Under the pieces are notes generated by a model. It was not told where the DNA came from, did no database searches, and was given only the letters and a program-made list of their open reading frames with translations. Shown one piece after another: positions 2,529 to 49,186 of a DNA stretch of 64,000 bases. The translations under genes and the position numbers were made by a program. The first letter of the stretch is position 1. Each line of letters opens with the position of its first letter. The DNA is from Kappaphycus alvarezii (lineage: Eukaryota > Rhodophyta > Florideophyceae > Gigartinales > Solieriaceae): NCBI GenBank assembly GCA_002205965.3, contig NADL03000523.1, positions 372,001 to 436,000 of the forward strand, read 5' to 3'.

Positions 2529-2538
2529 ACAGCTAAGC

Positions 2539-12451: not shown

Positions 12452-12505
12452 GAACGTTTAGGAGCCGACTGGCGCGTTTAAAACCAAAGTCCCAGCACTG
12501 TATTC

Positions 12506-13294
12506 CTACCGCATATCAGAGGGGTATGCGGACTGAACCGACGCGGAGGGGGTAGTGGGCCACCATACTTTGCATTTCGAGACTGCCAGACGGAGACCAC
12601 GACGTTTGGCCTCGGGAGAAGACAGAACCTCGATTACCTTGAGTATAGCCTCGTGTTTGGCTACAATGTAGCCATCGTCGTGATACCAAAGCTCCAAAAG
12701 GAGTGTGTCTATCCCTGTGTCCTCGTCGGGGAATCCCGACAGTAGCTCTTTGATCTTCAGGGCGATGGGGTGGAGTACAATAGCGAAAAGCAACCCGCTA
12801 AGCGGGTCTTCTTGCTGGGTACCCACGACACTCCGTATAATCTCGAATCCCGTCCAGAGGAACGCTGGGTCGTTGTTGTAGCAATACAATACCCAAGGAA
12901 GCAACTGGGGAAAGAGGTTCCGGACCGCATTGAAAAAGGAAGCACGGCTGCACAGGTTGAACGCATTCTTCAGATCGACCGACAAGAGCGCATATTCAGA
13001 GCGTGTACCAAACTCATTCACGATGCGCCGAACACCATGAACTACTGCATATATTCCTGAGCTTGTAGCGATACCAACCTGAAGAGGCTGGAAATAGGTA
13101 GCGGCCTTCTCATTGTCCTGAGTAGCGAGGCAGCTACAAACTAACCGTCGCAAAGTCTCTCCCACTGCAATGGGGCGCGGAGTCAGGTCCTTCTTCGCAA
13201 GTGGTGTGAGTGGAGCTCCAGCAATCCACGGGGCGAGGGCAGTAGGAGCCTTTCCGGAAGCCAGGACGTTCACCAGTTCTGTTAATAAATCCAA
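12506..13294 (-). pseudogene. LINE-A reverse transcriptase core
   Basis: A 262-codon frame with the non-LTR RT motifs in order: LTPRPIAVGETLRRLVCS (37-54), SVDLKNAF with catalytic Asp107, QQEDPLSGLLF (160-170), and WYHDDGYIV with the Asp pair at 206-207. The usual Gly in QQGDP is Glu here, which may weaken activity. RT copies the element RNA at the nicked target. The frame continues the upstream piece at 13334-13828 but a shift near 13295-13333 divides them. The left end of the tandem array (12794) cuts this gene at about residue 167, so the YHDD motif exists only in this copy. Confidence 0.85.
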
Positions 13295-13333
13295 GAATTT
13301 CCCCTGCGAGGAAGATGTGGGTGTCCGGAGAAG

Positions 13334-13828
13334 CTACTCGACGTGAGAGGGGCGATGTCCAGATCCCCCCGGGGCTGAACCGGGTTTGAAAGAGCGAACT
13401 GCCAGCAAAACCTCATCCTTTGTGATCGCTGAGATGTCGGGGGGTGCGGAAGGCGGTTCAAAGTATTCCTCATCCTCCCGGGAAGATTGAGGATGTTTAG
13501 CTCGGAGGGCGTCAGACACAGACTTAGTTGCCGGTAACACCCCGAGAGATCCTAAAGCCTGTGAAGCTTTCCCGTTTGCTCCTTCGCGGGCGAGTCTTAT
13601 GGCACGACGGATGTTGGCCTGTTTCTGCTCCCGGGGCGTTAAAGTTCGCTTTGTTCGGGAGGTCGCTTGGTAAAGTGCGTTCTGCCATAAGGTTTGGAAC
13701 TGTTCTGCATTCGACAATTCGAGCCGTTCTCTGACTAAGTCGCTGGTCGATTGGACTTGCGTTATCACAATTGGCTTTGCCATTATACGGTATCTACGCT
13801 CCGGTACAAATTTACTGGGTACCAACAC
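13334..13828 (-). pseudogene. LINE-A N-terminal RT segment
   Basis: A frame on the minus strand. The first ATG is at 13781-13783 (MAKPIVITQVQSTSDL); the open frame itself reaches 13828. It contains IRRAIRLAREGANGKASQAL, AITKDEVLLAVRSFKPGSAPG and GHRPSHVE, the standard lead-in to the RT finger domain. A stop after HVE and a frameshift separate it from the core. No N-terminal zinc fingers precede it; a LINE-B 3' end lies ~90 bp upstream, so this copy is probably 5'-truncated. Confidence 0.75.
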
Positions 13829-13920
13829 ACATATCTACCATAGTAAATTAACCCCCATTTTTCAAGTTTCAAAAAAAAATCATAGGAATCCCACCTGACC
13901 TATAGGGCACGCAAATGGTG

Positions 13921-14500
13921 GTGGTAAATCTTCATAGGCTGTACAATGTTGCACAGAAGCGTGCGGAGGGTATTCATAAATCAACTACGGATGCGGGCGG
14001 CGGGTAGAAACCAGTCGCGCCTGCATTATTTGGAGACTAAATGCAAAACGGGTAAGGAAGTCACGGAGCTCCTGTTGAGGGGAGGAACCGCGACGGGAAG
14101 CAGCGAAAGAAGCAAGGCGGCGGAAGAAACCCTTGCCGTCGTCGCCCAAGGCGCCATAGATATCAATCCCGATAGGGGAGAGGAGGATATCGTTTTGGTT
14201 GCAGTAAGTGCCGTAATGACGATGCTTCTCGCGTTCTGCGAGTGTTGCGGCAGCGCCTGCGGTAACAGTACTTGGCGAAATGTGGCGGCGTGCGGCGGGT
14301 GGGCAACAGTAACGTCGACGGCGATATCGGTGCTGTGAAGCCCGTATGCAGCGGGTATTTAAATGTCCATTCGTAGCGCGGGGGACTCCGAATGCCAAGA
14401 TGAGTTGGGAACCTGGTAGAGGAGCGGATGCTCGACGAGGGCGACGATCCCAACTTCCTTGCAGTGGCGGGGAAGAACGTTGCGGAGAATGTGATGACGA
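13921..14500 (-). pseudogene. LINE-B 3' half, unit 1
   Basis: Minus-strand LINE-B without the LINE-A interruption seen at 8867: ILRNVLPRHCKEVGIVALVE, then (other frame) AAATLAEREKHRHYGTYC, LLSPIGIDIYGALGDDG, RGSSPQQELRDF, RRPHP stop, and the tail down to 13921 (GTGGTAAATC on the plus strand). Several frameshifts. It meets a plus-strand LINE-A at about 14500, head to head. Confidence 0.75.
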
Positions 14501-15811
14501 AAATAGCGTTCCAGCTGCTCCGAAATTGCTTCGGAGTCTGCAAACTCGGCTACTTACTGAGCGTAGTCCCGACGTCGTCCACCGCCGAGGGCGCTGCCAT
14601 GTTTGACGATATGATGGAGCGCTGCGTCCGCACACTGGCAAGGGGGGTCTTGGAGTCAAAGGTCTTCCGTGAACTTCAACTCCTAGTGAAACCACTGGAT
14701 GCGAAGCGGCCCTCCCTTGGGATCCGATTCACTTCCGCCAAAAACATCGCCGCGGCCGCCTTCCTCGCCTCCAGGGCGGCCGCCAACAGGTTGTGCAAAG
14801 TTTTTCTGCCCGCTCCTATCACGAGTCTCGCCACCTACAACGACGCTTTGGGCGCCCACCGGAATTGCTCACTTTCCTGTCTGCAGTCAAGGATTCTACC
14901 ATTTCGTGCCTTTTGCTCACGCAATACACCATCGCAAAAGAAACTAACAGACGCAATCCATGCAGCAGTGGAAGAGAGCATTTCCCACGGTGATCAAAGA
15001 AGGCAGGCATTCCGCGCATCTATGGCCCTCCCGGGTGCCAAGGAATGGGTGTACTGCGCCCCGTGCCCCGGCCTCAAGATCAGTATTGATCCCCGTGAAT
15101 TTGCGGTGTGGTTTTAATACGTCTGCCAAGTCCCGTTCTTCCCTTCGGACGTCTCGTGCCCGAGACGAAACTGCCCGAAACCCTCGACTGTCTCGGGGAT
15201 CACCTCCTTCACTGCAGATATGGTGGGCACAGAACTCGACGGCATGACCATCAAGTGGCCCTGTTTGCACAAGGCCCGCAGAGAGCGGCCCGTCACCCTG
15301 CCGTCGAACCGGGGGACGGGGTCCATCGCACGAGGCCAGACATCCCGGCGATGGGAAGCAGTGGAGGTACGAATTTCTTTGACGTGATGTTCGTCAACCC
15401 GCTGGCGCCCTCCCACAGGGGGGCCCAAACGTTTAATCCGCTCACCTCCCTCAATGCGGCCGTCTCTGCGAGGCATAGAAGATATGAATATTTTATTGCA
15501 ACCTCTGTGAGAAGTAAACTCGTGCCTATCCCTATATCTTCTCTCGGAGGTTGGCACCCAGACGCTTACAGGGTGCTAACCGACGTCGCGCGGAACGTGG
15601 CCGTTAGGGCGATGGAGGCATATGGTAAGGTCCGAGCGGTACTTACTCAGAGGCACGCTGCGGCGGCCGTAATGTTCAACGCAGCTTGTCTGCTGAGCGG
15701 CCTTGAGCCGGCTTTTTAGAGAAATTTAAGAGGTATTACTGGTCACTCTGTAGGATATTCCGGTTCACAACCGACCATATCTTTCAAATATTAAATCACC
15801 CCACATTTTCC
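14500..15811 (+). pseudogene. LINE-A 3' half, unit 1
   Basis: 5'-truncated plus-strand LINE-A. The first frame to the stop at 15115-15117 encodes AFQLLRNCFGVCKLGYLL ... TSAKNIAAAAFLASRAAANR, LPGAKEWVYCAPCPGL and EFAVWF, where a TAA replaces the CAA codon of the intact copy. A second frame (to 15719) gives GDHLLHCRYGG, HRTRPDIPAMG, FFDVMFVNPLAPSHRG, SSLGGWHPDA and QRHAAAAVMFNAACLLSGL. The diverged 3' tail ends near 15811 (TCAAATATTAAATCACCCC). Not functional in this state. Confidence 0.8.
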
Positions 15812-18800
15812 ACCTTACCGCCACTTGCAGTACACAAAATACCCATTTAAGCGGGCGCTACCGCAGATTTATCCAAATTGGCCAGTTAAAAGTCAAAGGA
15901 GATTCCGCACACGTGACGCTCTCGTAGCGAGGTGTCTGCCTTAGCAAGGTGATTACGGTTATCGCTCTTTAGTATCACTGTGTGCCTACCTTTCCAACGC
16001 CACCTGCTTGTTGACTTAGCTACCAGCTGCTTTTCAGTTGGTGCAAAGCCTCCGTTTTTCCGGGGATAGGTTATGAAGCATGGTCTGAATGAAAGTTATT
16101 ACACCCTCAGCTTGAGCACCAATCGCGGTAAATCAAACCCATTTACCCGCTTAAAAACTCCCCTGGTTTTTTTCTAAGAATCATGGCTGTAAAATAGCCT
16201 CTATTTCTCCCTACCACTAAACTTCTGATTCTTGTAACTCTTTCGCTACAAACGATTTAATTTCATCCTAGATAAAACATCGTGTATCTACAACACTAAA
16301 GCATGGGTGCTACATGCCCCTGAAAACCTCCCTGAGGACTACCTTCTCTCCCAAACAGTCGACTCGCTATTTTCAGCAGGCGGCTACAGGCTCCATTTTA
16401 GTTAATGGAAATGCTGTGTTGTTAGTGCTGTAGATCCTGAAACATGGTCTTAGTGCAAATTCTTGGCATTCCCACCCTTTGAACTACTCGCACTAAATCA
16501 ACCGAACATATTTCCGTAATTAATAACTAGACGACACCCTGAACTCAATTCTGTCCTTTTGGAATCTTAGCTTGAATGAGTAGTGGAATCATACATGCTT
16601 AAGTCTTGATCATTAACATCAAGCTCTGGGTAGGACAACTTCCATTTCTGGTAACAATGGCTACCTCGTCTGTTTTTCATCACCTACCACCCCAGATTAT
16701 CTTAGTTACAATGCATACGTTTGTAGCTCGGGCTCTGGTACAGTTATTTACCAGAATGCTCATCGATATCACCCTGTGCTTCCCGCTTTACATGCTAGAA
16801 AGACTATCGGAGTTCTTACTTTCACACACCTGCTCTCCATCAATTTGAATCACTGTACTCGGCGCGCCAACGGGAACATGCTAAAATATAGACCCCGCTA
16901 GGTATTTACGTCTCTGACGCTGCTTTTTCAGCCACAATGAACAGCATTGATGTCCTCGTAGTACGTACTCACTCCTCTTGTCAGCGCATGTGCGTTCCCG
17001 TTGAAAATTTCTCTTCCAAGAAAACCGCAATACATTACCACGATAACATTTTTTCAAATATTATTTCATCTTTGTGTTTTAGCATACACCGAGGATTGCC
17101 GACCGGCACCTTTCAAATATGAAAGAACCGAATGGATCCGTTCTTTGTGTTCCTAGCGACTACGGTTGTTCACAAATGCTTTGGAAGGTGTTTTGAAGGG
17201 TGTCTCCACCAAGTTGTGATATTCTCCCTGTGATGATTACTAAATCTTCAGCGTTTGAGAAACCATAATTTTATTCACTTCCCTTTTCATGTCCACAACC
17301 AGTTCTTTTTTCGACGAATGGCCACTTCTTGCATCAACAGTCCTGTTTTCTATTTCTTTCCCTTCTACATCGCTACTCCAAATAAAGTCACGTACTTATA
17401 TATTGTCATCACAAAATACAATGAAGTCCCTCGCTATGTACTTGCAAAGGAAATTTCAGTTGTTTCTGCCGGTGGAGTAAAATTTAGTCCGAAGAATTTA
17501 TTATATCAACTGCAATCCAGCGATCTATAGGTCCTGCCAATGGTTTGATTACAAGTACAGAGGACTCCCAACCTTTCCATTACTCACAGTAAACCACCCC
17601 TTTACCCCTGTAATCAGCGAGGTACATACAATGTACAACCGCCGGGACATTCCAGCTGCTAGAAAGAAGTTTTAAGTTACAGTAGAAATCAAACCAATGT
17701 TCTAATAAAAATAGGCAAGCATATGAGAAAGGCTATCCTTAAACTTAAGTGGATGTACGAGGTTCTCATTTACTGTAACAGATATGCTAGCTGATTCCCA
17801 GTAGAATTGTATGGAAATTAAAATCAAGTAAATATGGGATTTGGTTTGTAACAAAAACCGTTCAAGGTTCTAAATGGATAATAAGTAAGAAAGAAACAAT
17901 ATTGCGCAGATTTACGCAGCCTCCATGCTAATTTTTAAACTTTTTTCGTGTATCGATTTCTGAATTGCTTTATAAAAGGCTACAAGTAACAACCTTCATA
18001 GGAATATTACAGAAAAGATTGAGCATGTGTTTAAATTTTTGATATTCCAGTAGCTGTATGACGACATCTGACCAGACTTTCCATTTTCTGTTAGACACTG
18101 AAATCTTAAGGCTTTAACCAGATCATCCGCTACCAGATGTGAGAGCCAGTTGGCGGGAGCCAATTGTTAGTGCCCATAGCAGGGGATTCTTTTCAAATAG
18201 AGAATCACCCCAAAGTTCTTTATTTTAAAACAGAAATTTATAACTGTCATCCTAATGTCTGAAATTGAATATCTGTATCTCATTGAAGATTATACAGTGC
18301 TGTAGTTTAGAAAAATGAGACTCTTGCGCAAAATGACATGAATTTGCAGGAGGTTACGTTCTTCCAAGCTGATCCTCGCCCTCAATTGTAACATACGTTC
18401 TTAGTGTATTGTAACAATAATCTCTTGCATCGTACATATGATAATTTCTACGCACTATATCGTTCACTATAACACTCTGTCTATGTCATGTATGTAATTA
18501 TTAATGGAAATGAGAGAATAAATACCCCTTTCCCGGTACTCAATGAAACTAAAATAAAGACCTACCCAAAATGGTAAATAATGAGTGGTGGCTAGTCCTC
18601 AGCATTTATCCTACAATTTTTTTGGCGCGATGAAGCACACGATAACTTGTTGCATTTTTGAAACGTTCTTTGATGCAAATACAAAAATTGATTAGAGAAG
18701 CTCTTAAATCAAATGCCCCGCACTTTTGCTTTATTACCTCTCTTACCAAAATAGTTGTTGTTCCATTACTCTTGTGAAAAAGCGGTAATTATATACTTGC

Positions 18801-19403
18801 ATACTACGCTGCCTTACACATTTCCAATCAATCATTCGACATAGCGAAAGTAACCTGTGTCTATAAAAGAGAGAGCCTCGATATTTATTTTTTGATGTTA
18901 TCTATGTAAGGTGCTTACAATTTTTCTACGCCCACTCTAAAGTGACTCGTGCACTGCACGGAATGTGCTTAAAGGAAATGTAGTTGGAATGCAAAAATAT
19001 TAGTAGTATATTTAATATCTAAGGAACGGAGGATTTTCTTGCATTTCCACTATATATATTTCCAAGAGTGACACAACCAAAAGTTTTCCTCTTTATAGAT
19101 CTCTCTGAGTACAAACAAGCCGTTTCATTTAAGTACTTCTTTGATTTGGGAAAAATGTATGATGTAAGTAACAATTGAAGCTGTGCAATTCTCCATATTT
19201 ACATTTACCTGATATTATAACTAGAGGTGAGCCATCCAGATTGAACTTTTAGTATACTGTAAAGTTATCTATTTCAAGCTAGCAGATTGATAAAATTTGC
19301 TTGGACTAGAAATCAAAGTACCAAAGGAAAGTTGGACCATTAGACCTTCTTGGAAATAATTTTGCACAAGATGCCTTTGGAAAACCTGCGGTCCTGTTGC
19401 GGA
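15812..19403. other. Gene-poor block of the array unit, copy 1
   Basis: About 3.6 kb, AT-richer, no recognisable protein, RNA or known repeat. Small frames exist (80 codons at 16606, 61 at 16937, 91 at 17255, all plus) but resemble nothing I know. They are identical between units only because the whole block is, so conservation is no evidence for them. The ATG at 16937 follows a CTTTTTCAG, which could be a 3' splice site; this is weak. Equivalent blocks: 24913-28502, 33933-37522, 43013-46604. Confidence 0.5.
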
Positions 19404-19412
19404 TCAATACTA

Positions 19413-19592
19413 GGGGGGAAGGTTTGAGTTTTTCACTCTTGGAAGATATATCTGATCTATCTCATGGTTTTCCAGACAACCAGAATCGACTCAAAAAGGA
19501 ATGCGGACACAGTGTTGGGGAAGGAACTACGCTCCCTAAAAGGCTACCTTCAGGCCAGCCATCAAGCAGGCCACATCAGACATGACGGTTGC
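19413..19592 (-). mobile_element. LINE-A tail insertion with 9-bp TSD, unit 1
   Basis: 180-bp minus-strand insertion holding the last ~18 codons of LINE-A (SDVACLMAGLKVAF, stop) and the complete 3' tail, ending in CCTTCCCCC. It is flanked by TCAATACTA at 19404-19412 and 19593-19601. It inserted next to or into a LINE-B piece. Copies of this same event are at 28512-28690, 37532-37711 and 46614-46792, so it predates the amplification. Confidence 0.9.
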
Positions 19593-19601
19593 TCAATACT
19601 A

Positions 19602-20079
19602 TCATTCAAGATTTCAATTTATGCTGAGATCAATATTTTAAATAACAATGTCCTCCGGAATGCCATCCACCGGTACTGCAAGGAATTGGGCATCTCCGCA
19701 CTCGTCGAAGACACTCCTCCCCGTAGGGATCCAAACTCGTCTCCATCTCTACGCATGGACCTCTACATTCCGGGTGCCTATGGGCTCGACTCTCGTGATA
19801 TCGCCCTGGACGTCACTGTGGCCCATCCTCACTCCGTCAATTGCATCTCCCAAAGCGCATATTCCGCCGGAGCCAGCGAGGTTCCGACATTACGGTCCGC
19901 ACTGCAACGCTCACGACATCTTTCTCCTTCCGGTAGGTGTTGACTCCTATGGAGCTTTAGGGGCCAGCGGAACAAAATTATTGCGCCTTCTCGCATCTTT
20001 CGCTTTAAAGCCGCCGGAATTCGGCGCCAGCGCTGGAGCCTCAGGACTTAGTTACCCGCTTTTCGTTTTTCCTTCATAA
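19602..20079 (+). pseudogene. LINE-B endonuclease fragment, unit 1
   Basis: Plus strand: NNNVLRNAIHRYCKELGISALVED, RMDLYIPGAYGLDSRDIALD, DVTVAHPHS, ISQSAYSAGASE, then in another frame HYGPHCNAHDIFLLPVGVDSYGALG and LLRLLASFALK. It carries the LINE-B RLE order (R-M-D ... D-V-T). It is a subfamily clearly diverged from the 8345 and 13921 copies. At least one frameshift near 19880. Confidence 0.75.
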
Positions 20080-20378
20080 GATGCTGGCCCGCTAGGTCAA
20101 TACCCGCCGCGTGCCTGAGTAGTTATCATTGGTCTTCTCCCTCACACTTGCTTTAGGGGCTTTCGTTTGTTGTAAAAGAATTCCACACACAATAACAGCA
20201 GCTTTTCCCTTTCAGCAAACATTAGAAAAAACAAGATTTTTTCAAACATGAAGTGGGCTAAAATCTGTCATAGATAATGGAGACTTTCACGCCAAGATCG
20301 GTTGAGCTGTCGCCGATTATTCGAGGTAGAAGTTAATTATTGTGGTAGAGAACAAACTATCGAGCTCGATGGCAGACT
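20080..20378. other. Spacer between LINE-B piece and zinc-finger region
   Basis: About 300 bp, nothing recognised. Confidence 0.35.
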
Positions 20379-20588
20379 TCAGTCTGAAGTTTGTGTAATT
20401 TCATTAACAGATCGCTCCTGTTTCGATTCCGTCACTTTGAGTGAATATTCAGCAAACCGATGAAGAAGCCGTAAAGACCTTTTTACTTTGCCCAGGTCTG
20501 TAGTAATATACGACTCCTTGCAAGTGGCTTTTCCGCAACCCCTTTTGATGCACTTGTACTGTAAAACTGAAACAATCAGGACTGTCAA
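20379..20588 (-). CDS. Small Cys/Lys-rich ORF, unit 1
   Basis: 69-codon frame 82 bp downstream of the zinc-finger gene, same strand, different frame: VLQYKCIKRGCGKATCKESY ... LRLLHRFAEYSLKV. It may be a second exon, a separate small gene or chance. Closely equivalent frames occur at 38496-38693 and 47579-47788, and an altered one at 29471-29707. Basic composition with four cysteines hints at a zinc-binding remnant, but the spacing does not fit a standard finger. Confidence 0.3.
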   Translation of the reverse strand: MTVLIVSVLQYKCIKRGCGKATCKESYITTDLGKVKRSLRLLHRFAEYSLKVTESKQERSVNEITQTSD

Positions 20589-20670
20589 ACACTTTTGTGG
20601 AGTCTAATTACTTCAACCATCCCTTTTTCGCAACAAGCATCGAAATAAATACTTAAGAGTTAAAGGGGAG

Positions 20671-21144
20671 CTATATACGCCGCGAAAGATTATCTTGCAG
20701 TGGGGACTGGACGTGGAAGCTCTGATGAACGCTTCGAATATGACGATTAAGAGATGAGCGATGTCCATAACATTTGCCACAGCCAAAAGGACAAAGATGA
20801 GGCCTTTTACCTTGATGTACTGTCTCCTTGTGAGTATTTAAGTGACCAATCCTTTGAAAAAGAGATCCACAGCTGTTGCAGAGGAACTTCCTTGCATTTC
20901 GAGATGAGGATTTTGAAGATTTCACAACAGAGAGGAGCGAATCTTTTGACTCCCTTGAATGTCGAGGCTCCACTTTATCAGGTTCGTTCGGATTGTTCAG
21001 GACAATATTCCAAAATTCCTTTGGTCTTGAACCGTTCTCAGAGTATGAAGAAGGTGCATTCAGGTCCTTTTTGCTTGAACATAGGGTTTGAGCAACATTC
21101 GACTTTGCCGAAGACTGCTGCGTAACTGTTCCTTGTTGCTCCAT
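20671..21144 (-). CDS. C2H2 zinc-finger protein, unit 1 (intact)
   Basis: 157-codon frame from ATG (21142-21144) to stop. Residues 1-85 are low-complexity Ser/Asn/Lys-rich. Finger 1 has C89, C92, H105, H110 (FLCNSCGSLFQRIGHLNTH). A linker QGKRPH follows. Finger 2 has C118, C122, H135, H140 (CPFGCGKCYGHRSSLNRH). Tandem C2H2 fingers with a GKRP linker normally bind DNA, so a nuclear DNA-binding or regulatory role is inferred. It could be a host transcription-factor-like gene or an element-borne gene. It is the only plausible intact protein gene of the array and is present in four copies; this one and unit 4 are intact. No intron is needed. Confidence 0.7.
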   Translation of the reverse strand: MEQQGTVTQQSSAKSNVAQTLCSSKKDLNAPSSYSENGSRPKEFWNIVLNNPNEPDKVEPRHSRESKDSLLSVVKSSKSSSRNARKFLCNSCGSLFQRIGHLNTHKETVHQGKRPHLCPFGCGKCYGHRSSLNRHIRSVHQSFHVQSPLQDNLSRRI

Positions 21145-21465
21145 TTTACTAAAACCCGAAGGACATAAACTTCAGGAAGTCAAAAGATGGAGAAGTTTGG
21201 TACTGAGAAGCTTTCTATCCCTTCATATTAAGATCCTTTTTTAAGTAGGGAGCAGATGGCTTAGAATGGATGACGAGAAATATATTGATAAACAGTTGCA
21301 TTGCGTTTCCTGTACATCTTACGAACAGAATAATAGTTGCACTCTGCTTATTCACATCTACTGTCCCCTATAGGTACCTCTTGTCTAAAGTTCCAACACA
21401 AAGACTGTTTTCATTCAGTAGTAACGCTCTTGTGACAGAGGCTATCACGAGGCACTTTGAATAAG

Positions 21466-21532
21466 TTGTCTGGAAAAACATGGGATAGACCGGATATATC
21501 TTCCAAGAGTAAAACACCCAAACCTTTTCCCT
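21466..21532 (+). mobile_element. LINE-A tail insertion, 67 bp, 11-bp TSD, unit 1
   Basis: Only the last 67 bp of LINE-A (TTGTCTGGAAAAACATGGG ... AAACCTTTTCCCT), flanked by CTTTGAATAAG at 21455-21465 and 21533-21543. Equivalent copies: 30548-30613, 39582-39648, 48666-48732. Confidence 0.9.
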
Positions 21533-21590
21533 CTTTGAATAAGAAAACTTTCTGAGTAACTTTATGGCATCAGTATAATGGGTGTCAACT

Positions 21591-21642
21591 ATGGGATAGA
21601 TCGGATATATCTTCCAAAAGTAAAACACCCAAACCTTTCCCC
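21591..21642 (+). mobile_element. LINE-A tail fragment, second, unit 1
   Basis: 52 bp of terminal LINE-A tail ending AAACCTTTCCCC, same orientation as the previous one and ~50 bp away. No clear TSD. Equivalent copies: 30671-30722, 39706-39758, 48791-48842. Confidence 0.75.
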
Positions 21643-21893
21643 TTTTGACTAAAACCATTATCAAGTGGAGGTCTCAGGAAATCGATGAATAAGTGGCAGC
21701 AGGTACCCGATCAATTTTTTGCAACTAATCTGGTATGGATTTCCTTGTGATGAGAGATGAACACTTCAAATCATATAGCTAAATTTCCTGTCGATCATGT
21801 TGAGAAAGTACGGTGAATTTTTTTCAAGTTAGGAAAAGGGGCAAAAAGGGGGGTGTCTTTATTGAGATGTGTGGATTTGCTGGAACCCATTAA

Positions 21894-22928
21894 CCCGCTA
21901 AGCGGGTCTTCTTGCTGGGTACCCACGACACTCCGTATAATCTCGAATCCCGTCCAGAGGAACGCTGGGTCGTTGTTGTAGCAATACAATACCCAAGGAA
22001 GCAACTGGGGAAAGAGGTTCCGGACCGCATTGAAAAAGGAAGCACGGCTGCACAGGTTGAACGCATTCTTCAGATCGACCGACAAGAGCGCATATTCAGA
22101 GCGTGTACCAAACTCATTCACGATGCGCCGAACACCATGAACTACTGCATATATTCCTGAGCTTGTAGCGATACCAACCTGAAGAGGCTGGAAATAGGTA
22201 GCGGCCTTCTCATTGTCCTGAGTAGCGAGGCAGCTACAAACTAACCGTCGCAAAGTCTCTCCCACTGCAATGGGGCGCGGAGTCAGGTCCTTCTTCGCAA
22301 GTGGTGTGAGTGGAGCTCCAGCAATCCACGGGGCGAGGGCAGTAGGAGCCTTTCCGGAAGCCAGGACGTTCACCAGTTCTGTTAATAAATCCAAGAATTT
22401 CCCCTGCGAGGAAGATGTGGGTGTCCGGAGAAGCTACTCGACGTGAGAGGGGCGATGTCCAGATCCCCCCGGGGCTGAACCGGGTTTGAAAGAGCGAACT
22501 GCCAGCAAAACCTCATCCTTTGTGATCGCTGAGATGTCGGGGGGTGCGGAAGGCGGTTCAAAGTATTCCTCATCCTCCCGGGAAGATTGAGGATGTTTAG
22601 CTCGGAGGGCGTCAGACACAGACTTAGTTGCCGGTAACACCCCGAGAGATCCTAAAGCCTGTGAAGCTTTCCCGTTTGCTCCTTCGCGGGCGAGTCTTAT
22701 GGCACGACGGATGTTGGCCTGTTTCTGCTCCCGGGGCGTTAAAGTTCGCTTTGTTCGGGAGGTCGCTTGGTAAAGTGCGTTCTGCCATAAGGTTTGGAAC
22801 TGTTCTGCATTCGACAATTCGAGCCGTTCTCTGACTAAGTCGCTGGTCGATTGGACTTGCGTTATCACAATTGGCTTTGCCATTATACGGTATCTACGCT
22901 CCGGTACAAATTTACTGGGTACCAACAC
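21894..22928 (-). pseudogene. LINE-A 5' part, unit 2
   Basis: Same two frames as in unit 1 (22434-22928; core beginning at 22394) but the RT is cut at the unit junction after QQEDPLSGL. The frame then runs 33 codons into unrelated sequence, ending at 21795. Motif C and everything downstream are missing, so it cannot encode a working RT. Confidence 0.85.
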
Positions 22929-23020
22929 ACATATCTACCATAGTAAATTAACCCCCATTTTTCAAGTTTCAAAAAAAAATCATAGGAATCCCACCTGACC
23001 TATAGGGCACGCAAATGGTG

Positions 23021-28502: not shown

Positions 28503-28511
28503 TCAATACTA

Positions 28512-31995: not shown

Positions 31996-32080
31996 TATCT
32001 ACCATAGTAAATTAACCCCATTTTTCAAGTTTCAAAAAATCATAGGAATCCCACCTGACCTATAGGGCACGCAAATGGTG

Positions 32081-37522: not shown

Positions 37523-37531
37523 TCAATACTA

Positions 37532-39261: not shown

Positions 39262-39581
39262 TTTACTAAAACCCGAAGGACATAAACTTCAGGAAGTCAA
39301 AAGATGGAGAAGTTTGGTACTGAGAAGCTTTCTATCCCTTCATATTAAGATCCTTTTTTAAGTAGGGAGCAGATGGCTTAGAATGGATGACGAGAAATAT
39401 ATTGATAAACAGTTGCATTGCGTTTCCTGTACATCTTACGAACAGAATAATAGTTGCACTCTGCTTATTCACATCTACTGTCCCTATAGGTACCTCTTGT
39501 CTAAAGTTCCAACACAAAGACTGTTTTCATTCAGTAGTAACGCTCTTGTGACAGAGGCTATCACGAGGCACTTTGAATAAG

Positions 39582-39758
39582 TTGTCTGGAAAAACATGGG
39601 ATAGACCGGATATATCTTCCAAGAGTAAAACACCCAAACCTTTTCCCTCTTTGAATAAGAAAACTTTCTGAGTAACTTTATGGCATCAGTATAATGGGTG
39701 TCAACTATGGGATAGATCGGATATATCTTCCAAAAGTAAAACACCCAAACCTTTCCCC
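39582..39758 (+). mobile_element. Two LINE-A tails, unit 3
   Basis: 39582-39648 with TSD CTTTGAATAAG (39571-39581, 39649-39659), and 39706-39758. Confidence 0.8.
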
Positions 39759-40008
39759 TTTTGACTAAAACCATTATCAAGTGGAGGTCTCAGGAAATCG
39801 ATGAATAAGTGGCAGCAGGTACCCGATCAATTTTTTGCAACTAATCTGGTATGGATTTCCTTGTGATGAGAGATGAACACTTCAAATCATATAGCTAAAT
39901 TTCCTGTCGATCATGTTGAGAAAGTACGGTGAATTTTTTTCAAGTTAGGAAAAGGGGCAAAAAGGGGGTGTCTTTATTGAGATGTGTGGATTTGCTGGAA
40001 CCCATTAA

Positions 40009-41040
40009 CCGCTAAGCGGGTCTTCTTGCTGGGTACCCACGACACTCCGTATAATCTCGAATCCGTCCAGAGGAACGCTGGGTCGTTGTTGTAGCAATAC
40101 AATACCCAAGGAAGCAACTGGGGAAAGAGGTTCCGGACCGCATTGAAAAAGGAAGCACGGCTGCACAGGTTGAACGCATTCTTCAGATCGACCGACAAGA
40201 GCGCATATTCAGAGCGTGTACCAAACTCATTCACGATGCGCCGAACACCATGAACTACTGCATATATTCCTGAGCTTGTAGCGATACCAACCTGAAGAGG
40301 CTGGAAATAGGTAGCGGCCTTCTCATTGTCCTGAGTAGCGAGGCAGCTACAAACTAACCGTCGCAAAGTCTCTCCCACTGCAATGGGGCGCGGAGTCAGG
40401 TCCTTCTTCGCAAGTGGTGTGAGTGGAGCTCCAGCAATCCACGGGGCGAGGGCAGTAGGAGCCTTTCCGGAAGCCAGGACGTTCACCAGTTCTGTTAATA
40501 AATCCAAGAATTTCCCCTGCGAGGAAGATGTGGGTGTCCGGAGAAGCTACTCGACGTGAGAGGGGCGATGTCCAGATCCCCCGGGGCTGAACCGGGTTTG
40601 AAAGAGCGAACTGCCAGCAAAACCTCATCCTTTGTGATCGCTGAGATGTCGGGGGGTGCGGAAGGCGGTTCAAAGTATTCCTCATCCTCCCGGGAAGATT
40701 GAGGATGTTTAGCTCGGAGGGCGTCAGACACAGACTTAGTTGCCGGTAACACCCCGAGAGATCCTAAAGCCTGTGAAGCTTTCCCGTTTGCTCCTTCGCG
40801 GGCGAGTCTTATGGCACGACGGATGTTGGCCTGTTTCTGCTCCCGGGGCGTTAAAGTTCGCTTTGTTCGGGAGGTCGCTTGGTAAAGTGCGTTCTGCCAT
40901 AAGGTTTGGAACTGTTCTGCATTCGACAATTCGAGCCGTTCTCTGACTAAGTCGCTGGTCGATTGGACTTGCGTTATCACAATTGGCTTTGCCATTATAC
41001 GGTATCTACGCTCCGGTACAAATTTACTGGGTACCAACAC
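40009..41040 (-). pseudogene. LINE-A 5' part, unit 4
   Basis: As in unit 2, with single-base losses. The N-terminal frame (40495-41040) reads through as 181 codons because one C is missing from a C run near 40578, and the RT frame ends in junction sequence at 39974. Confidence 0.8.
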
Positions 41041-41132
41041 ACATATCTACCATAGTAAATTAACCCCCATTTTTCAAGTTTCAAAAAAAAATCATAGGAA
41101 TCCCACCTGACCTATAGGGCACGCAAATGGTG

Positions 41133-41707
41133 GTGGTAAATCTTCATAGGCTGTACAATGTTGCACAGAAGCGTGCGGAGGGTATTCATAAATCAACTAC
41201 GGATGCGGGCGGCGGGTAGAAACCAGTCGCGCCTGCATTATTTGGAGACTAAATGCAAAACGGGTAAGGAAGTCACGGAGCTCCTGTTGGGGAGGAACCG
41301 CGACGGGAAGCAGCGAAAGAAGCAAGGCGGCGGAAGAAACCCTTGCCGTCGTCGCCCAAGGCGCCATAGATATCAATCCCGATAGGGAGAGGATATCGTT
41401 TTGGTTGCAGTAAGTGCCGTAATGACGATGCTTCTCGCGTTCTGCGAGTGTTGCGGCAGCGCCTGCGGTAACAGTACTTGGCGAAATGTGGCGGCGTGCG
41501 GCGGGGTGGGCAACAGTAACGTCGACGGCGATATCGGTGCTGTGAAGCCCGTATGCAGCGGGTATTTAAATGTCCATTCGTAGCGCGGGGGACTCCGAAT
41601 GCCAAGATGAGTTGGGAACCTGGTAGAGGAGCGGATGCTCGACGAGGGCGACGATCCCAACTTCCTTGCAGTGGCGGGGAAGAACGTTGCGGAGAATGTG
41701 ATGACGA
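41133..41707 (-). pseudogene. LINE-B 3' half, unit 4
   Basis: Counterpart of 13921-14500 with a few small losses near 41289 and 41388. Confidence 0.7.
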
Positions 41708-43012
41708 AAATAGCGTTCCAGCTGCTCCGAAATTGCTTCGGAGTCTGCAAACTCGGCTACTTACTGAGCGTAGTCCCGACGTCGTCCACCGCCGAGGGCG
41801 CTGCCATGTTTGACGATATGATGGAGCGCTGCGTCCGCACACTGGAAGGGGGGTCTTGGAGTCAAAGGTCTTCCGTGAACTTCAACTCCTAGTGAAACCA
41901 CTGGATGCGAAGCGGCCCTCCCTTGGGATCGATTCACTTCCGCCAAAAACATCGCCGCGGCCGCCTTCCTCGCCTCCAGGGCGGCCGCCAACAGGTTGTG
42001 CAAAGTTTTCTGCCCGCTCCTATCACGAGTCTCGCCACCTACAACGACGCTTTGGCGCCCACCGGAATTGCTCACTTTCCTGTCTGCAGTCAAGGATTCT
42101 ACCATTTCGTGCCTTTTGCTCACGCAATACACCATCGCAAAAGAAACTAACAGACGCAATCCATGCAGCAGTGGAAGAGAGCATTTCCCACGGTGATCAA
42201 AGAAGGCAGGCATTCCGCGCATCTATGGCCCTCCCGGGTGCCAAGGAATGGGTGTACTGCGCCCCGTGCCCCGGCCTCAAGATCAGTATTGATCCCCGTG
42301 AATTTGCGGTGTGGTTTTAATACGTCTGCCAAGTCCCGTTCTTCCCTTCGGACGTCTCGTGCCCGAGACGAAACTGCCCGAAACCCTCGACTGTCTCGGG
42401 ATCACCTCCTTCACTGCAGATATGGTGGGCACAGAACTCGACGGCATGACCATCAAGTGGCCCTGTTTGCACAAGGCCCGCAGAGAGCGGCCCGTCACCC
42501 TGCCGTCGAACCGGGGGACGGGGTCCATCGCACGAGGCCAGACATCCCGGCGATGGGAAGCAGTGGAGGTACGAATTTCTTTGACGTGATGTTCGTCAAC
42601 CCGCTGGCGCCCTCCCACAGGGGGCCCAAACGTTTAATCCGCTCACCTCCCTCAATGCGGCCGTCTCTGCGAGGCATAGAAGATATGAATATTTTATTGC
42701 AACCTCTGTGAGAAGTAAACTCGTGCCTATCCCTATATCTTCTCTCGGAGGTTGGCACCCAGACGCTTACAGGGTGCTAACCGACGTCGCGCGGAACGTG
42801 GCCGTTAGGGCGATGGAGGCATATGGTAAGGTCCGAGCGGTACTTACTCAGAGGCACGCTGCGGCGGCCGTAATGTTCAACGCAGCTTGTCTGCTGAGCG
42901 GCCTTGAGCCGGCTTTTTAGAGAAATTTAAGAGGTATTACTGGTCACTCTGTAGGATATTCCGGTTCACAACCGACCATATCTTTCAAATATTAAATCAC
43001 CCCACATTTTCC
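41707..43012 (+). pseudogene. LINE-A 3' half, unit 4
   Basis: Counterpart of 14500-15811, the same amino-acid variants as units 1 and 2 (GGTNFFDVMF) but with several single-base losses that split it into four or more frames. Confidence 0.75.
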
Positions 43013-46000
43013 ACCTTACCGCCACTTGCAGTACACAAAATACCCATTTAAGCGGGCGCTACCGCAGATTTATCCAAATTGGCCAGTTAAAAGTCAAAGG
43101 AGATTCCGCACACGTGACGCTCTCGTAGCGAGGTGTCTGCCTTAGCAAGGTGATTACGGTTATCGCTCTTTAGTATCACTGTGTGCCTACCTTTCCAACG
43201 CCACCTGCTTGTTGACTTAGCTACCAGCTGCTTTTCAGTTGGTGCAAAGCCTCCGTTTTTCCGGGGATAGGTTATGAAGCATGGTCTGAATGAAAGTTAT
43301 TACACCCTCAGCTTGAGCACCAATCGCGGTAAATCAAACCCATTTACCCGCTTAAAAACTCCCCTGGTTTTTTTCTAAGAATCATGGCTGTAAAATAGCC
43401 TCTATTTCTCCCTACCACTAAACTTCTGATTCTTGTAACTCTTTCGCTACAAACGATTTAATTTCATCCTAGATAAAACATCGTGTATCTACAACACTAA
43501 AGCATGGGTGCTACATGCCCCTGAAAACCTCCCTGAGGACTACCTTCTCTCCCAAACAGTCGACTCGCTATTTTCAGCAGGCGGCTACAGGCTCCATTTT
43601 AGTTAATGGAAATGCTGTGTTGTTAGTGCTGTAGATCCTGAAACATGGTCTTAGTGCAAATTCTTGGCATTCCCACCCTTTGAACTACTCGCACTAAATC
43701 AACCGAACATATTTCCGTAATTAATAACTAGACGACACCCTGAACTCAATTCTGTCCTTTTGGAATCTTAGCTTGAATGAGTAGTGGAATCATACATGCT
43801 TAAGTCTTGATCATTAACATCAAGCTCTGGGTAGGACAACTTCCATTTCTGGTAACAATGGCTACCTCGTCTGTTTTTCATCACCTACCACCCCAGATTA
43901 TCTTAGTTACAATGCATACGTTTGTAGCTCGGGCTCTGGTACAGTTATTTACCAGAATGCTCATCGATATCACCCTGTGCTTCCCGCTTTACATGCTAGA
44001 AAGACTATCGGAGTTCTTACTTTCACACACCTGCTCTCCATCAATTTGAATCACTGTACTCGGCGCGCCAACGGGAACATGCTAAAATATAGACCCCGCT
44101 AGGTATTTACGTCTCTGACGCTGCTTTTTCAGCCACAATGAACAGCATTGATGTCCTCGTAGTACGTACTCACTCCTCTTGTCAGCGCATGTGCGTTCCC
44201 GTTGAAAATTTCTCTTCCAAGAAAACCGCAATACATTACCACGATAACATTTTTTCAAATATTATTTCATCTTTGTGTTTTAGCATACACCGAGGATTGC
44301 CGACCGGCACCTTTCAAATATGAAAGAACCGAATGGATCCGTTCTTTGTGTTCCTAGCGACTACGGTTGTTCACAAATGCTTTGGAAGGTGTTTTGAAGG
44401 GTGTCTCCACCAAGTTGTGATATTCTCCCTGTGATGATTACTAAATCTTCAGCGTTTGAGAAACCATAATTTTATTCACTTCCCTTTTCATGTCCACAAC
44501 CAGTTCTTTTTTCGACGAATGGCCACTTCTTGCATCAACAGTCCTGTTTTCTATTTCTTTCCCTTCTACATCGCTACTCCAAATAAAGTCACGTACTTAT
44601 ATATTGTCATCACAAAATACAATGAAGTCCCTCGCTATGTACTTGCAAAGGAAATTTCAGTTGTTTCTGCCGGTGGAGTAAAATTTAGTCCGAAGAATTT
44701 ATTATATCAACTGCAATCCAGCGATCTATAGGTCCTGCCAATGGTTTGATTACAAGTACAGAGGACTCCCAACCTTTCCATTACTCACAGTAAACCACCC
44801 CTTTACCCCTGTAATCAGCGAGGTACATACAATGTACAACCGCCGGGACATTCCAGCTGCTAGAAAGAAGTTTTAAGTTACAGTAGAAATCAAACCAATG
44901 TTCTAATAAAAATAGGCAAGCATATGAGAAAGGCTATCCTTAAACTTAAGTGGATGTACGAGGTTCTCATTTACTGTAACAGATATGCTAGCTGATTCCC
45001 AGTAGAATTGTATGGAAATTAAAATCAAGTAAATATGGGATTTGGTTTGTAACAAAAACCGTTCAAGGTTCTAAATGGATAATAAGTAAGAAAGAAACAA
45101 TATTGCGCAGATTTACGCAGCCTCCATGCTAATTTTTAAACTTTTTTCGTGTATCGATTTCTGAATTGCTTTATAAAAGGCTACAAGTAACAACCTTCAT
45201 AGGAATATTACAGAAAAGATTGAGCATGTGTTTAAATTTTTGATATTCCAGTAGCTGTATGACGACATCTGACCAGACTTTCCATTTTCTGTTAGACACT
45301 GAAATCTTAAGGCTTTAACCAGATCATCCGCTACCAGATGTGAGAGCCAGTTGGCGGGAGCCAATTGTTAGTGCCCATAGCAGGGGATTCTTTTCAAATA
45401 GAGAATCACCCCAAAGTTCTTTATTTTAAAACAGAAATTTATAACTGTCATCCTAATGTCTGAAATTGAATATCTGTATCTCATTGAAGATTATACAGTG
45501 CTGTAGTTTAGAAAAATGAGACTCTTGCGCAAAATGACATGAATTTGCAGGAGGTTACGTTCTTCCAAGCTGATCCTCGCCCTCAATTGTAACATACGTT
45601 CTTAGTGTATTGTAACAATAATCTCTTGCATCGTACATATGATAATTTCTACGCACTATATCGTTCACTATAACACTCTGTCTATGTCATGTATGTAATT
45701 ATTAATGGAAATGAGAGAATAAATACCCCTTTCCCGGTACTCAATGAAACTAAAATAAAGACCTACCCAAAATGGTAAATAATGAGTGGTGGCTAGTCCT
45801 CAGCATTTATCCTACAATTTTTTTGGCGCGATGAAGCACACGATAACTTGTTGCATTTTTGAAACGTTCTTTGATGCAAATACAAAAATTGATTAGAGAA
45901 GCTCTTAAATCAAATGCCCCGCACTTTTGCTTTATTACCTCTCTTACCAAAATAGTTGTTGTTCCATTACTCTTGTGAAAAAGCGGTAATTATATACTTG

Positions 46001-46604
46001 CATACTACGCTGCCTTACACATTTCCAATCAATCATTCGACATAGCGAAAGTAACCTGTGTCTATAAAAGAGAGAGCCTCGATATTTATTTTTTGATGTT
46101 ATCTATGTAAGGTGCTTACAATTTTTCTACGCCCACTCTAAAGTGACTCGTGCACTGCACGGAATGTGCTTAAAGGAAATGTAGTTGGAATGCAAAAATA
46201 TTAGTAGTATATTTAATATCTAAGGAACGGAGGATTTTCTTGCATTTCCACTATATATATTTCCAAGAGTGACACAACCAAAAGTTTTCCTCTTTATAGA
46301 TCTCTCTGAGTACAAACAAGCCGTTTCATTTAAGTACTTCTTTGATTTGGGAAAAATGTATGATGTAAGTAACAATTGAAGCTGTGCAATTCTCCATATT
46401 TACATTTACCTGATATTATAACTAGAGGTGAGCCATCCAGATTGAACTTTTAGTATACTGTAAAGTTATCTATTTCAAGCTAGCAGATTGATAAAATTTG
46501 CTTGGACTAGAAATCAAAGTACCAAAGGAAAGTTGGACCATTAGACCTTCTTGGAAATAATTTTGCACAAGATGCCTTTGGAAAACCTGCGGTCCTGTTG
46601 CGGA
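43013..46604. other. Gene-poor block, unit 4
   Basis: Counterpart of 15812-19403; I noticed no difference from unit 1 in the three small frames. Confidence 0.5.
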
Positions 46605-46613
46605 TCAATACTA

Positions 46614-47279
46614 GGGGGAAGGTTTGAGTTTTTCACTCTTGGAAGATATATCTGATCTATCTCATGGTTTTCCAGACAACCAGAATCGACTCAAAAAGGA
46701 ATGCGGACACAGTGTTGGGGAAGGAACTACGCTCCCTAAAAGGCTACCTTCAGGCCAGCCATCAAGCAGGCCACATCAGACATGACGGTTGCTCAATACT
46801 ATCATTCAAGATTTCAATTTATGCTGAGATCAATATTTTAAATAACAATGTCCTCCGGAATGCCATCCACCGGTACTGCAAGGAATTGGGCATCTCCGCA
46901 CTCGACGAAGACACTCCTCCCCGTAGGGATCCAAACTCGTCTCCATCTCTACGCATGGACCTCTACATTCCGGGTGCCTATGGGCTCGACTCTCGTGATA
47001 TCGCCCTGGACGTCACTGTGGCCCATCCTCACTCCGTCAATTGCATCTCCCAAAGCGCATATTCCGCCGGAGCCAGCGAGGTTCCGACATTACGGTCCGC
47101 ACTGCAACGCTCACGACATCTTTCTCCTTCCGGTAGGTGTTGACTCCTATGGAGCTTTAGGGGCCAGCGGAACAAAATTATTGCGCCTTCTCGCATCTTT
47201 CGCTTTAAAGCCGCCGGAATTCGGCGCCAGCGCTGGAGCCTCAGGACTTAGTTACCCGCTTTTCGTTTTTCCTTCATAA
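46614..47279. pseudogene. LINE-A tail insertion plus LINE-B piece, unit 4
   Basis: 46614-46792 LINE-A tail, minus strand, TSD TCAATACTA (46605-46613, 46793-46801). 46802-47279 plus-strand LINE-B with one substitution (ISALDEDT instead of ISALVEDT). Confidence 0.8.
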
Positions 47280-47870
47280 GATGCTGGCCCGCTAGGTCAA
47301 TACCCGCCGCGTGCCTGAGTAGTTATCATTGGTCTTCTCCCTCACACTTGCTTTAGGGGCTTTCGTTTGTTGTAAAAGAATTCCACACACAATAACAGCA
47401 GCTTTTCCCTTTCAGCAAACATTAGAAAAAACAAGATTTTTTCAAACATGAAGTGGGCTAAAATCTGTCATAGATAATGGAGACTTTCACGCCAAGATCG
47501 GTTGAGCTGTCGCCGATTATTCGAGGTAGAAGTTAATTATTGTGGTAGAGAACAAACTATCGAGCTCGATGGCAGACTTCAGTCTGAAGTTTGTGTAATT
47601 TCATTAACAGATCGCTCCTGTTTCGATTCCGTCACTTTGAGTGAATATTCAGCAAACCGATGAAGAAGCCGTAAAGACCTTTTTACTTTGCCCAGGTCTG
47701 TAGTAATATACGACTCCTTGCAAGTGGCTTTTCCGCAACCCCTTTTGATGCACTTGTACTGTAAAACTGAAACAATCAGGACTGTCAAACACTTTTGTGG
47801 AGTCTAATTACTTCAACCATCCCTTTTTCGCAACAAGCATCGAAATAAATACTTAAGAGTTAAAGGGGAG

Positions 47871-48344
47871 CTATATACGCCGCGAAAGATTATCTTGCAG
47901 TGGGGACTGGACGTGGAAGCTCTGATGAACGCTTCGAATATGACGATTAAGAGATGAGCGATGTCCATAACATTTGCCACAGCCAAAAGGACAAAGATGA
48001 GGCCTTTTACCTTGATGTACTGTCTCCTTGTGAGTATTTAAGTGACCAATCCTTTGAAAAAGAGATCCACAGCTGTTGCAGAGGAACTTCCTTGCATTTC
48101 GAGATGAGGATTTTGAAGATTTCACAACAGAGAGGAGCGAATCTTTTGACTCCCTTGAATGTCGAGGCTCCACTTTATCAGGTTCGTTCGGATTGTTCAG
48201 GACAATATTCCAAAATTCCTTTGGTCTTGAACCGTTCTCAGAGTATGAAGAAGGTGCATTCAGGTCCTTTTTGCTTGAACATAGGGTTTGAGCAACATTC
48301 GACTTTGCCGAAGACTGCTGCGTAACTGTTCCTTGTTGCTCCAT
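47871..48344 (-). CDS. C2H2 zinc-finger protein, unit 4 (intact)
   Basis: Same 157-residue product as the unit 1 gene, with no amino-acid difference noticed: both fingers (C89/C92/H105/H110 and C118/C122/H135/H140) and the Ser/Asn-rich N-terminal half are intact. Being intact in the first and last units, it is a plausible expressed gene in more than one dose. DNA binding is inferred from the fingers only. Confidence 0.7.
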   Translation of the reverse strand: MEQQGTVTQQSSAKSNVAQTLCSSKKDLNAPSSYSENGSRPKEFWNIVLNNPNEPDKVEPRHSRESKDSLLSVVKSSKSSSRNARKFLCNSCGSLFQRIGHLNTHKETVHQGKRPHLCPFGCGKCYGHRSSLNRHIRSVHQSFHVQSPLQDNLSRRI

Positions 48345-48665
48345 TTTACTAAAACCCGAAGGACATAAACTTCAGGAAGTCAAAAGATGGAGAAGTTTGG
48401 TACTGAGAAGCTTTCTATCCCTTCATATTAAGATCCTTTTTTAAGTAGGGAGCAGATGGCTTAGAATGGATGACGAGAAATATATTGATAAACAGTTGCA
48501 TTGCGTTTCCTGTACATCTTACGAACAGAATAATAGTTGCACTCTGCTTATTCACATCTACTGTCCCCTATAGGTACCTCTTGTCTAAAGTTCCAACACA
48601 AAGACTGTTTTCATTCAGTAGTAACGCTCTTGTGACAGAGGCTATCACGAGGCACTTTGAATAAG

Positions 48666-48842
48666 TTGTCTGGAAAAACATGGGATAGACCGGATATATC
48701 TTCCAAGAGTAAAACACCCAAACCTTTTCCCTCTTTGAATAAGAAAACTTTCTGAGTAACTTTATGGCATCAGTATAATGGGTGTCAACTATGGGATAGA
48801 TCGGATATATCTTCCAAAAGTAAAACACCCAAACCTTTCCCC
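48666..48842 (+). mobile_element. Two LINE-A tails, unit 4
   Basis: 48666-48732 with TSD CTTTGAATAAG (48655-48665, 48733-48743), and 48791-48842. Confidence 0.85.
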
Positions 48843-49186
48843 TTTTGACTAAAACCATTATCAAGTGGAGGTCTCAGGAAATCGATGAATAAGTGGCAGC
48901 AGGTACCCGATCAATTTTTTGCAACTAATCTGGTATGGATTTCCTTGTGATGAGAGATGAACACTTCAAATCATATAGCTAAATTTCCTGTCGATCATGT
49001 TGAGAAAGTACGGTGAATTTTTTTCAAGTTAGGAAAAGGGGCAAAAAGGGGGGTGTCTTTATTGAGATGTGTGGATTTGCTGGAACCCATTTGGAGTTGA
49101 AAGTCTGAATGTCATATTAAATACATGTACCGATAGTCGAAGCAATGTACAAATCATTGCTGTCGAATGCTAGCACCAGAAAGAGT

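What the first reader, a model, noticed from the sequence alone, without database searches (positions are those of the whole stretch)
12794..49091. Four-copy, 9.1-kb tandem amplification with one zinc-finger gene
Four head-to-tail units of 9100, 9074, 9041 and 9083 bp are nearly identical, including 3.6 kb with no selective constraint that I can see. Either this is a very recent amplification or the units are homogenised. The amplified unit contains one recognisable intact protein gene, a C2H2 finger protein. Two of the four copies are intact.
Basis: seen in the sequence. Interest (0 to 1): 0.75.

Follow-up and report, generated by a model that had tools for sequence, protein, structure and literature searches.

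The report
Recent zinc-finger gene block tandem amplification
A 9-kilobase piece of what is probably a red-alga genome, carrying one small DNA-binding gene among remains of mobile elements, sits in near-identical copies side by side; it looks like a real, very recent duplication of an ordinary kind, but the copy number and the 'broken' copies cannot be trusted without reads.

Summary
The array is there: four head-to-tail units, 12792-49091, in a probably florideophyte red-alga genome. Both outer edges look ancestral: 5 of 5 tested retroelement copies align through the left edge, and a roughly 90% paralog on C653 aligns through the right. Only the internal joint AACCCATT|AACCCGCT is derived, without microhomology.

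97 of 121 private variant columns lie in 4.5 kb spanning the array's midpoint, mostly single-base deletions plus letters typical of other retroelement copies. 'Four copies' and 'two intact' are thus assembly statements. Elsewhere three unit comparisons show 1 substitution in 17,382 sites.

The gene encodes two C2H2 fingers, conserved (dN/dS 0.05-0.13), with a weakly constrained N-terminal part (0.52-0.90). The co-amplified companion DNA is near neutral but also lies downstream of four paralogous genes. 10 of 18 family loci lie on two contigs, 1.2% of the assembly. The array is the newest of several block duplications: a known kind of event, modest interest.

The parts
12792..21891 (+). unit 1 (9100 bp); its left edge is the ancestral joint with the left flank
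   Evidence: 5 of 5 dispersed retroelement copies tested (25 listed) align through position 12792
21892..30965 (+). unit 2 (9074 bp); its last ~1.7 kb lies in the error-rich centre
30966..40006 (+). unit 3 (9041 bp); its first 2.8 kb lies in the error-rich centre
40007..49091 (+). unit 4 (9085 bp); its right edge is the ancestral joint with the right flank
   Evidence: C653 homology runs 48733-49451 through the edge
21882..21899 (.). derived joint, copy 1 of 3 (others at 30965/30966, inside the error-rich centre, and 40006/40007, lacking one C); no microhomology
29292..33791 (.). error-rich middle of the array: 97 of 121 private variant columns; array midpoint is 30941
   Evidence: in 1.3 kb of unit 3, 20 of 39 private substitution columns carry the majority letter of 13 dispersed element copies
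20671..21171 (-). C2H2 two-finger ORF, unit 1 (166 codons stop to stop; first Met at residue 10), open
29761..30255 (-). same ORF, unit 2: small deletions, one TGA; lies in the error-rich zone
38792..39288 (-). same ORF, unit 3: split by a one-base deletion beside a T run; lies outside the error-rich zone
47871..48371 (-). same ORF, unit 4: open, identical protein to unit 1
11147..13834 (-). retroelement (RVT_1 reverse transcriptase, then a C-terminal region without a Pfam match) that runs through the left edge; the left breakpoint cuts it in the derived joints
14404..15719 (+). C-terminal part of a second, related retroelement; dispersed copies at 90-92% cover 14497-15811
16277..19647 (+). 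co-amplified, near-neutral companion stretch shared with C653 and, in part, with three older paralogous blocks
19648..20190 (+). insert absent from the C653 paralog; its ORF resembles a retroelement fragment (by eye)
49092..49451 (+). right flank still homologous to C653, showing that the right edge is ancestral

Best explanation
A C2H2 two-finger gene lies in a roughly 6-kb block that has been copied several times within a small part of this probably red-algal genome. On contig C519 retroelements had landed beside it. One break inside the left retroelement and one just past the gene's right side were joined head to tail without microhomology (end joining or replication template switching). 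That produced a tandem duplication, and unequal exchange, or further rounds of the same process, then raised the copy number to at least 2 and, as assembled, 4. Shown: the anatomy, which edges are ancestral, the blunt derived joint, the near-identity outside the centre, the conserved fingers, and the older paralogous blocks. Inferred: the joining mechanism, the growth by unequal exchange, and a mere gene-dosage effect on a transcription factor whose predicted DNA-contact residues are nearly fixed.
For: Units and joints. Left edge ancestral: 5 of 5 retroelement loci tested align across it (2 without gaps, 3 with), and all 5 stop exactly at the derived joint. Right edge ancestral: 732-bp alignment at 90.3% through it. 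Clean comparisons, zones chosen after seeing the profile: units 1-2 0/5792, units 1-4 1/6297, units 1-3 0/5293 substitutions, with 1, 1 and 7 gaps, against 0.087 per site to the C653 paralog. Fingers dN/dS 0.05-0.13, N-part 0.52-0.90 in 5 pairs. Older blocks in the same order and orientation: C653:445-451k, C519:63-79k, C525:91-96k.
Against: No reads or depth were available. The centre, including the second joint, is poorly resolved, and unit 3 differs from unit 1 by 25 substitutions and 46 gaps in its first 2.8 kb. The assembly holds near-identical redundant sequence elsewhere: C460 and C695 differ by one gap in 4973 bp. Polishing may have erased true differences. No expression data. On re-checking, only one joint is both exact and in clean sequence, so I lowered this from 0.75 to 0.73.
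Confidence: 0.73

Rival explanations
1. Assembly artefact: a chimeric or mis-joined read created the joint and the assembler multiplied the unit; the genome holds one copy.
For: Error-rich centre spanning the array midpoint, with letters of other dispersed retroelement copies; the second joint lies inside it. Near-identical redundant contigs (C460/C695) and contigs that look bacterial by inspection show an imperfect assembly.
Against: The first joint lies in clean sequence 9.1 kb from the left flank, and the third, apart from one missing C, in fairly clean sequence 9.1 kb from the right flank. Overlap-driven mis-joins need shared sequence at the joint, and none over 9 bp was found. Unsplit hairpin reads give inverted, not direct, repeats (recalled).
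Confidence: 0.17
2. Older array kept uniform by gene conversion or unequal crossing-over (concerted evolution).
For: Would also give near-identical units, spacer included. The tract in unit 3 with letters of dispersed element copies could be a conversion tract.
Against: Edge units 1 and 4 are hardly diverged (1 substitution in 6297), whereas edge copies of old homogenised arrays usually are (recalled). Not excluded.
Confidence: 0.07
3. The 9.1-kb unit is the tandem form of an extrachromosomal circle put back at its own place.
For: Anatomy (one joint, head to tail) is the same as shown.
Against: Beyond retroelement pieces and the finger gene no gene was recognised in the unit's ORFs that were scanned; nothing calls for it.
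Confidence: 0.03

Closest known systems
Recent tandem segmental (copy-number) duplication of a gene
   Same: Head-to-tail, one derived joint, ancestral outer edges, near-identical units
   Different: Nothing in kind; copy number unproven
C2H2 zinc-finger transcription factor expansions of multicellular red algae (PMC8304369, PMC12567131: passages seen)
   Same: C2H2 is typically the most abundant factor family in red algae outside the Cyanidiophyceae; gains after the split from Cyanidiales reported
   Different: Here expansion goes by block duplication of one small two-finger gene with a K-[ED]-F-W motif; this family is not mentioned in the passages seen
Clustered fast-evolving zinc-finger genes of animals (KRAB type, PRDM9), recalled
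   Same: Local clusters growing by duplication
   Different: Here 5 of 6 predicted base-contact residues are invariant among 9 members, not diversifying

Membership tests
Tandem segmental duplication | Head-to-tail copies with a repeated identical derived joint | tested here: met
   (third joint lacks one C; second lies in the error-rich centre)
Tandem segmental duplication | Outer edges correspond to the unduplicated state | tested here: met
Tandem segmental duplication | Copy number supported by depth and spanning reads | not testable with these tools
   no reads held
C2H2 zinc-finger protein | Two C2H2 fingers by profile, fold and invariant ligands | tested here: met
   PF00096 in 9 of 9 members at E up to 0.01; ligands C98, C101, H114, H119, C127, C131, H144, H149 invariant; two beta-beta-alpha units, block pLDDT 82-92 over residues 91-150
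Diversifying (arms-race) zinc-finger cluster | Base-contact positions vary between copies | tested here: not met
   contact positions -1, 3 of finger 1 and -1, 3, 6 of finger 2 (R107, H110, H137, S140, R143; numbering recalled) invariant in 9 of 9; position 6 of finger 1 varies; fingers dN/dS 0.05-0.13 in 5 pairs. The 9 rows are half of 18 loci
U/V gametolog pair (C519 and C653 as the two sex haplotypes) | Collinear allelic genes on two diverged contigs | tested here: inconclusive
   two collinear pairs, dS 0.11 and 0.135; but in 34 kb of C653 around the block the window's flanks find only short or repeat-like matches beyond 49451 and left of the block, and C519_63k/C653_450k are not a closest pair

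The most novel reading that the evidence does not exclude
C519 and C653 are two diverged, mostly non-recombining haplotypes of one chromosome region (for example the U and V sex regions, or a structurally frozen haplotype pair), in which a small two-finger factor has repeatedly duplicated, and the array is a haplotype-specific dosage amplification of that regulator in progress.
Probability: 0.06. Interest if true: 0.7.

Novelty: new member of a known kind. Interest (0 to 1): 0.3.

Why it matters
If real, it is a clean snapshot of a young tandem amplification with both ancestral edges and an outgroup block still readable, in a lineage where zinc-finger expansion is discussed. It also warns that intact and broken copies in the middle of such arrays can be consensus errors.

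Tried and rejected
Rfam on the window: nothing at gathering scores. SSU rRNA search of the genome failed twice. The COX1 search returned bacterial-looking contigs and nuclear mitochondrial-like pieces, so the lineage was judged by a phycobilisome linker instead. The name Kappaphycus alvarezii is only my recollection of an assembly of about 336 Mb. Three searches with that name and assembly terms returned no paper; passages of two papers mention that a K. alvarezii assembly exists, without the figures that I would need. The name is not claimed.

C653 as a plain allele of C519: tested with 34 kb of C653 around the block and one gene pair. Beyond the shared block only short or repeat-like matches were found, so it was kept only as the novel case.

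Companion stretch as a second gene: tblastx hits against three older blocks are spread over frames on both strands with similar scores, and divergence is close to dS, so it was rejected.

Arms-race zinc-finger reading: rejected because 5 of 6 predicted contact residues are fixed. Viral origin of the gene: 41 stretches matched a pattern and none was a relative in viral contigs. Flank ORF at 59306-59737 as a gene of the same kind: it belongs to a dispersed family of at least 150 matches (150 of 713 candidates scored). A search for papers on assembly errors found none. A paper on C2H2 genes of Pyropia haitanensis (PMC12071319) was seen in a listing only.

My notebook entry does not give the count of the error zone wrongly in the report's sense but says 99 of 121; the correct figure is 97.

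Full report
What is there. The window is C519:372001-436000 of a 336,021,096-bp, 884-contig assembly. Self-comparison confirms four head-to-tail units between 12792 and 49091, pairwise about 99.1-99.8% identical. With joints at 21891/21892, 30965/30966 and 40006/40007 they measure 9100, 9074, 9041 and 9085 bp. A 3.2-kb stretch of the unit (16400-19640) was found four times at 100% (rounded), all on this contig. The other listed hits are at most 93%: paralogous blocks on C519, C653 and C525, and dispersed copies of a repeat of about 180 bp near its end (40 of 2831 candidates scored).

Organism. Phycobilisome linker matches lie on 15 contigs (17 matches). One of these contigs, C695 (2.77 Mb), also carries a copy of the unit's second retroelement, so the linkers belong to the same organism. 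One linker was compared with the Protein Data Bank. The highest summed score is the repeat linker CpcN of 8imn (553 bits over 5 stretches). The best match in one stretch over nearly the full length is LR3 of 5y6p (448 bits), against 277 bits for LR3 of 6kgx. I recall 5y6p as the red alga Griffithsia and 6kgx as Porphyridium, so a florideophyte red alga is most likely; species not claimed. COX1 matches on C546, C562 and C580 look bacterial by inspection.

Which edges are old. At the left edge a reverse-transcriptase element (minus strand, RVT_1) has an open frame that continues from unit 1 into the flank. Five dispersed copies were tested (L023-L026 and L028, of 25 listed). All five align through position 12792 (2 without gaps, 3 with), and all five stop exactly at the derived joint. 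At the right edge a block on C653 (89.6-103.2 kb) aligns at about 90% through position 49091 as far as 49451. So both outer edges show the unduplicated state, and the internal joint AACCCATT|AACCCGCT is the only new joint. It has no microhomology, and no exact match over 9 bp was found between the two breakpoint regions (400 bp either side). This points to an in-situ tandem duplication, not an inserted array.

How far the differences between units can be trusted. Of 136 variable alignment columns, 5 at the joints were left out and 10 have no 3:1 majority. The other 121 are private to one unit: 88 deletions, 29 substitutions and 4 insertions (columns, not events; some substitutions next to gaps are alignment effects). 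97 of the 121 lie in 29292-33791 (bins of 1.5 kb). The array's midpoint is 30941. 60 of 88 deletions fall in runs of two or more equal bases, while 48.5% of bases lie in such runs. In the second retroelement (unit columns 1706-3010), 20 of 39 private substitution columns of unit 3 carry the majority letter of 13 other genomic copies, while 29 of 29 deletions are seen in none of them. As a yardstick, where the four units agree the others' majority differs in 62 of 1220 columns. In columns 4-972, where 5 other copies were compared, 7 of 8 private columns of unit 3 go against the others and 1 fits neither side. The simplest reading is that the array's middle was closed with few or mis-recruited long reads and little polishing. 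A gene-conversion tract from a dispersed copy is a weaker alternative for the substitutions. So the stop in unit 2 lies in untrustworthy sequence. The one-base frameshift in unit 3 (beside a T run) lies outside the worst zone but is of the same error type. The copy number 4 is not proven. Of the joints, the first is exact and in clean sequence, the second is exact but inside the worst zone, and the third is in fairly clean sequence but lacks one C. The first and third lie 9.1 kb from the flanks.

Age. In three comparisons in cleaner zones, chosen after seeing the profile, there are 0 substitutions in 5792 sites (units 1-2), 1 in 6297 (units 1-4) and 0 in 5293 (units 1-3); two further ones give 0 in 2997 (units 2-3) and 1 in 5292 (units 3-4). 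In the dirty zones there are 25 substitutions in 2737 (units 1-3), 1 in 2779 (units 1-4) and 1 in 3272 (units 1-2). Divergence to the C653 block is 0.087-0.089 in noncoding sites and dS 0.11. Taken at face value, the amplification is more than a thousand times younger than the C519/C653 split. Two cautions apply: polishing with short reads can make copies look alike, and concerted evolution would look the same.

The gene. The ORF (first Met at residue 10) encodes a low-confidence, probably disordered N-terminal part with a K-[ED]-F-W motif and two C2H2 fingers: PF00096 in 9 of 9 family members scanned, and an AlphaFold2 model with two beta-beta-alpha units, block pLDDT 82-92 over residues 91-150, overall pLDDT 61.5 and pTM 0.28. 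In five paralog pairs dN/dS is 0.05-0.13 in the fingers and 0.52-0.90 in the N-terminal part. The C525:91k copy, which has stops, was kept apart: dN 0.09 and dS 0.507 in the fingers, 0.409 and 0.424 in the N-terminal part. Five of six predicted base-contact residues (R107, H110, H137, S140, R143; contact positions recalled) are invariant in nine members, eight of which share 38-89% identity with the window's protein; the sixth, position 6 of finger 1, varies. The nine rows are half of the 18 loci; two held loci with stops (C525:91k, C62:119k) were left out. The family looks like a conserved DNA-binding module with a fast-changing tail, not an arms-race cluster.

A block that has duplicated before. 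The noncoding DNA upstream of the gene gives 0.089, 0.165, 0.278 and 0.338. tblastx hits are spread over frames of both strands. Yet it is not random baggage: parts of it lie downstream of the gene in the same orientation in the C653:90k, C653:450k, C519:63k and C525:91k blocks. Of 18 family loci with E up to 1e-17 (array counted once), 10 lie on C519 and C653, together 4.10 of 336 Mb; 2 lie on C525 and 6 elsewhere (150 of 231 candidates were scored). The array is thus the newest of a series of block duplications, most of them in one small part of the genome.

Other possibilities. An artefact is the main rival: the assembly holds near-identical redundant stretches (C460/C695, one gap in 4973 bp), and only one joint is both exact and in clean sequence. 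A mis-join without shared sequence at the joint is still less likely than a real joint. C519 and C653 share two collinear gene pairs of similar dS (0.11 and 0.135), which would fit diverged haplotypes. But in 34 kb of C653 around the block the window's flanks find only short or repeat-like matches beyond the shared part, and the third pair (63k/450k) is not a closest pair: dS 0.558, against 0.228 for 450k to the array gene. [quoted passage not shown] the window's gene matched only zinc-finger families in Pfam at E up to 0.01.

Verdict. Real feature, ordinary kind: a probably very recent tandem duplication of a zinc-finger block, with an unproven copy number. The passages seen report C2H2 expansion in red algae in general; I saw no mention of this family in them. 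Beyond those the search for prior work was one paper listing, so absence from print is not claimed.

Noticed in passing
G000:C460:503001-508000 (L063) and G000:C695:2562501-2567500 (L064): Two contigs near-identical over the 5 kb compared (one gap, no mismatch): redundant sequence or a nearly identical second haplotype in the assembly.
   Followed up: partly
G000:C546, C562, C580 (L029, L030, L032): Contigs with cytochrome oxidase genes that look bacterial by inspection, probably associated bacteria left in the assembly.
   Followed up: partly
G000:C519:796013-796399 (L031); also C519:598818-599036 and C508:686314-686751: COX1 fragments with in-frame TGA (read as Trp in L031; C508 also has a TAG), probably nuclear mitochondrial DNA, two of the places on the window's own contig.
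   Followed up: partly
window 55423-58329: Decayed copia-type retrotransposon (RVT_2, Pol_BBD matches), minus strand.
   Followed up: no
window 59306-59737: ORF with a weak zf-met match that belongs to a dispersed family with at least 150 matches in the genome, probably carried by a mobile element.
   Followed up: partly
window 9622-9679, 10613-10668, 19414-19469, 21587-21643, 49890-49937 and others: Short repeats of about 45-70 bp in both orientations, scattered around the retroelement ends and the array; nature not determined.
   Followed up: no
window 11147-12037 and 14404-15719: C-terminal regions of retroelements with a conserved RPDI-AMG...FFDV-like stretch but no Pfam family; perhaps a restriction-like endonuclease domain (recalled resemblance).
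   Followed up: no
G000:C519:824662-825132 (L041) and G000:C62:119397-119834 (L044): Finger-gene pair at 93-95% DNA identity in its longer pieces, with many small gaps; the C62 frame has stops.
   Followed up: partly
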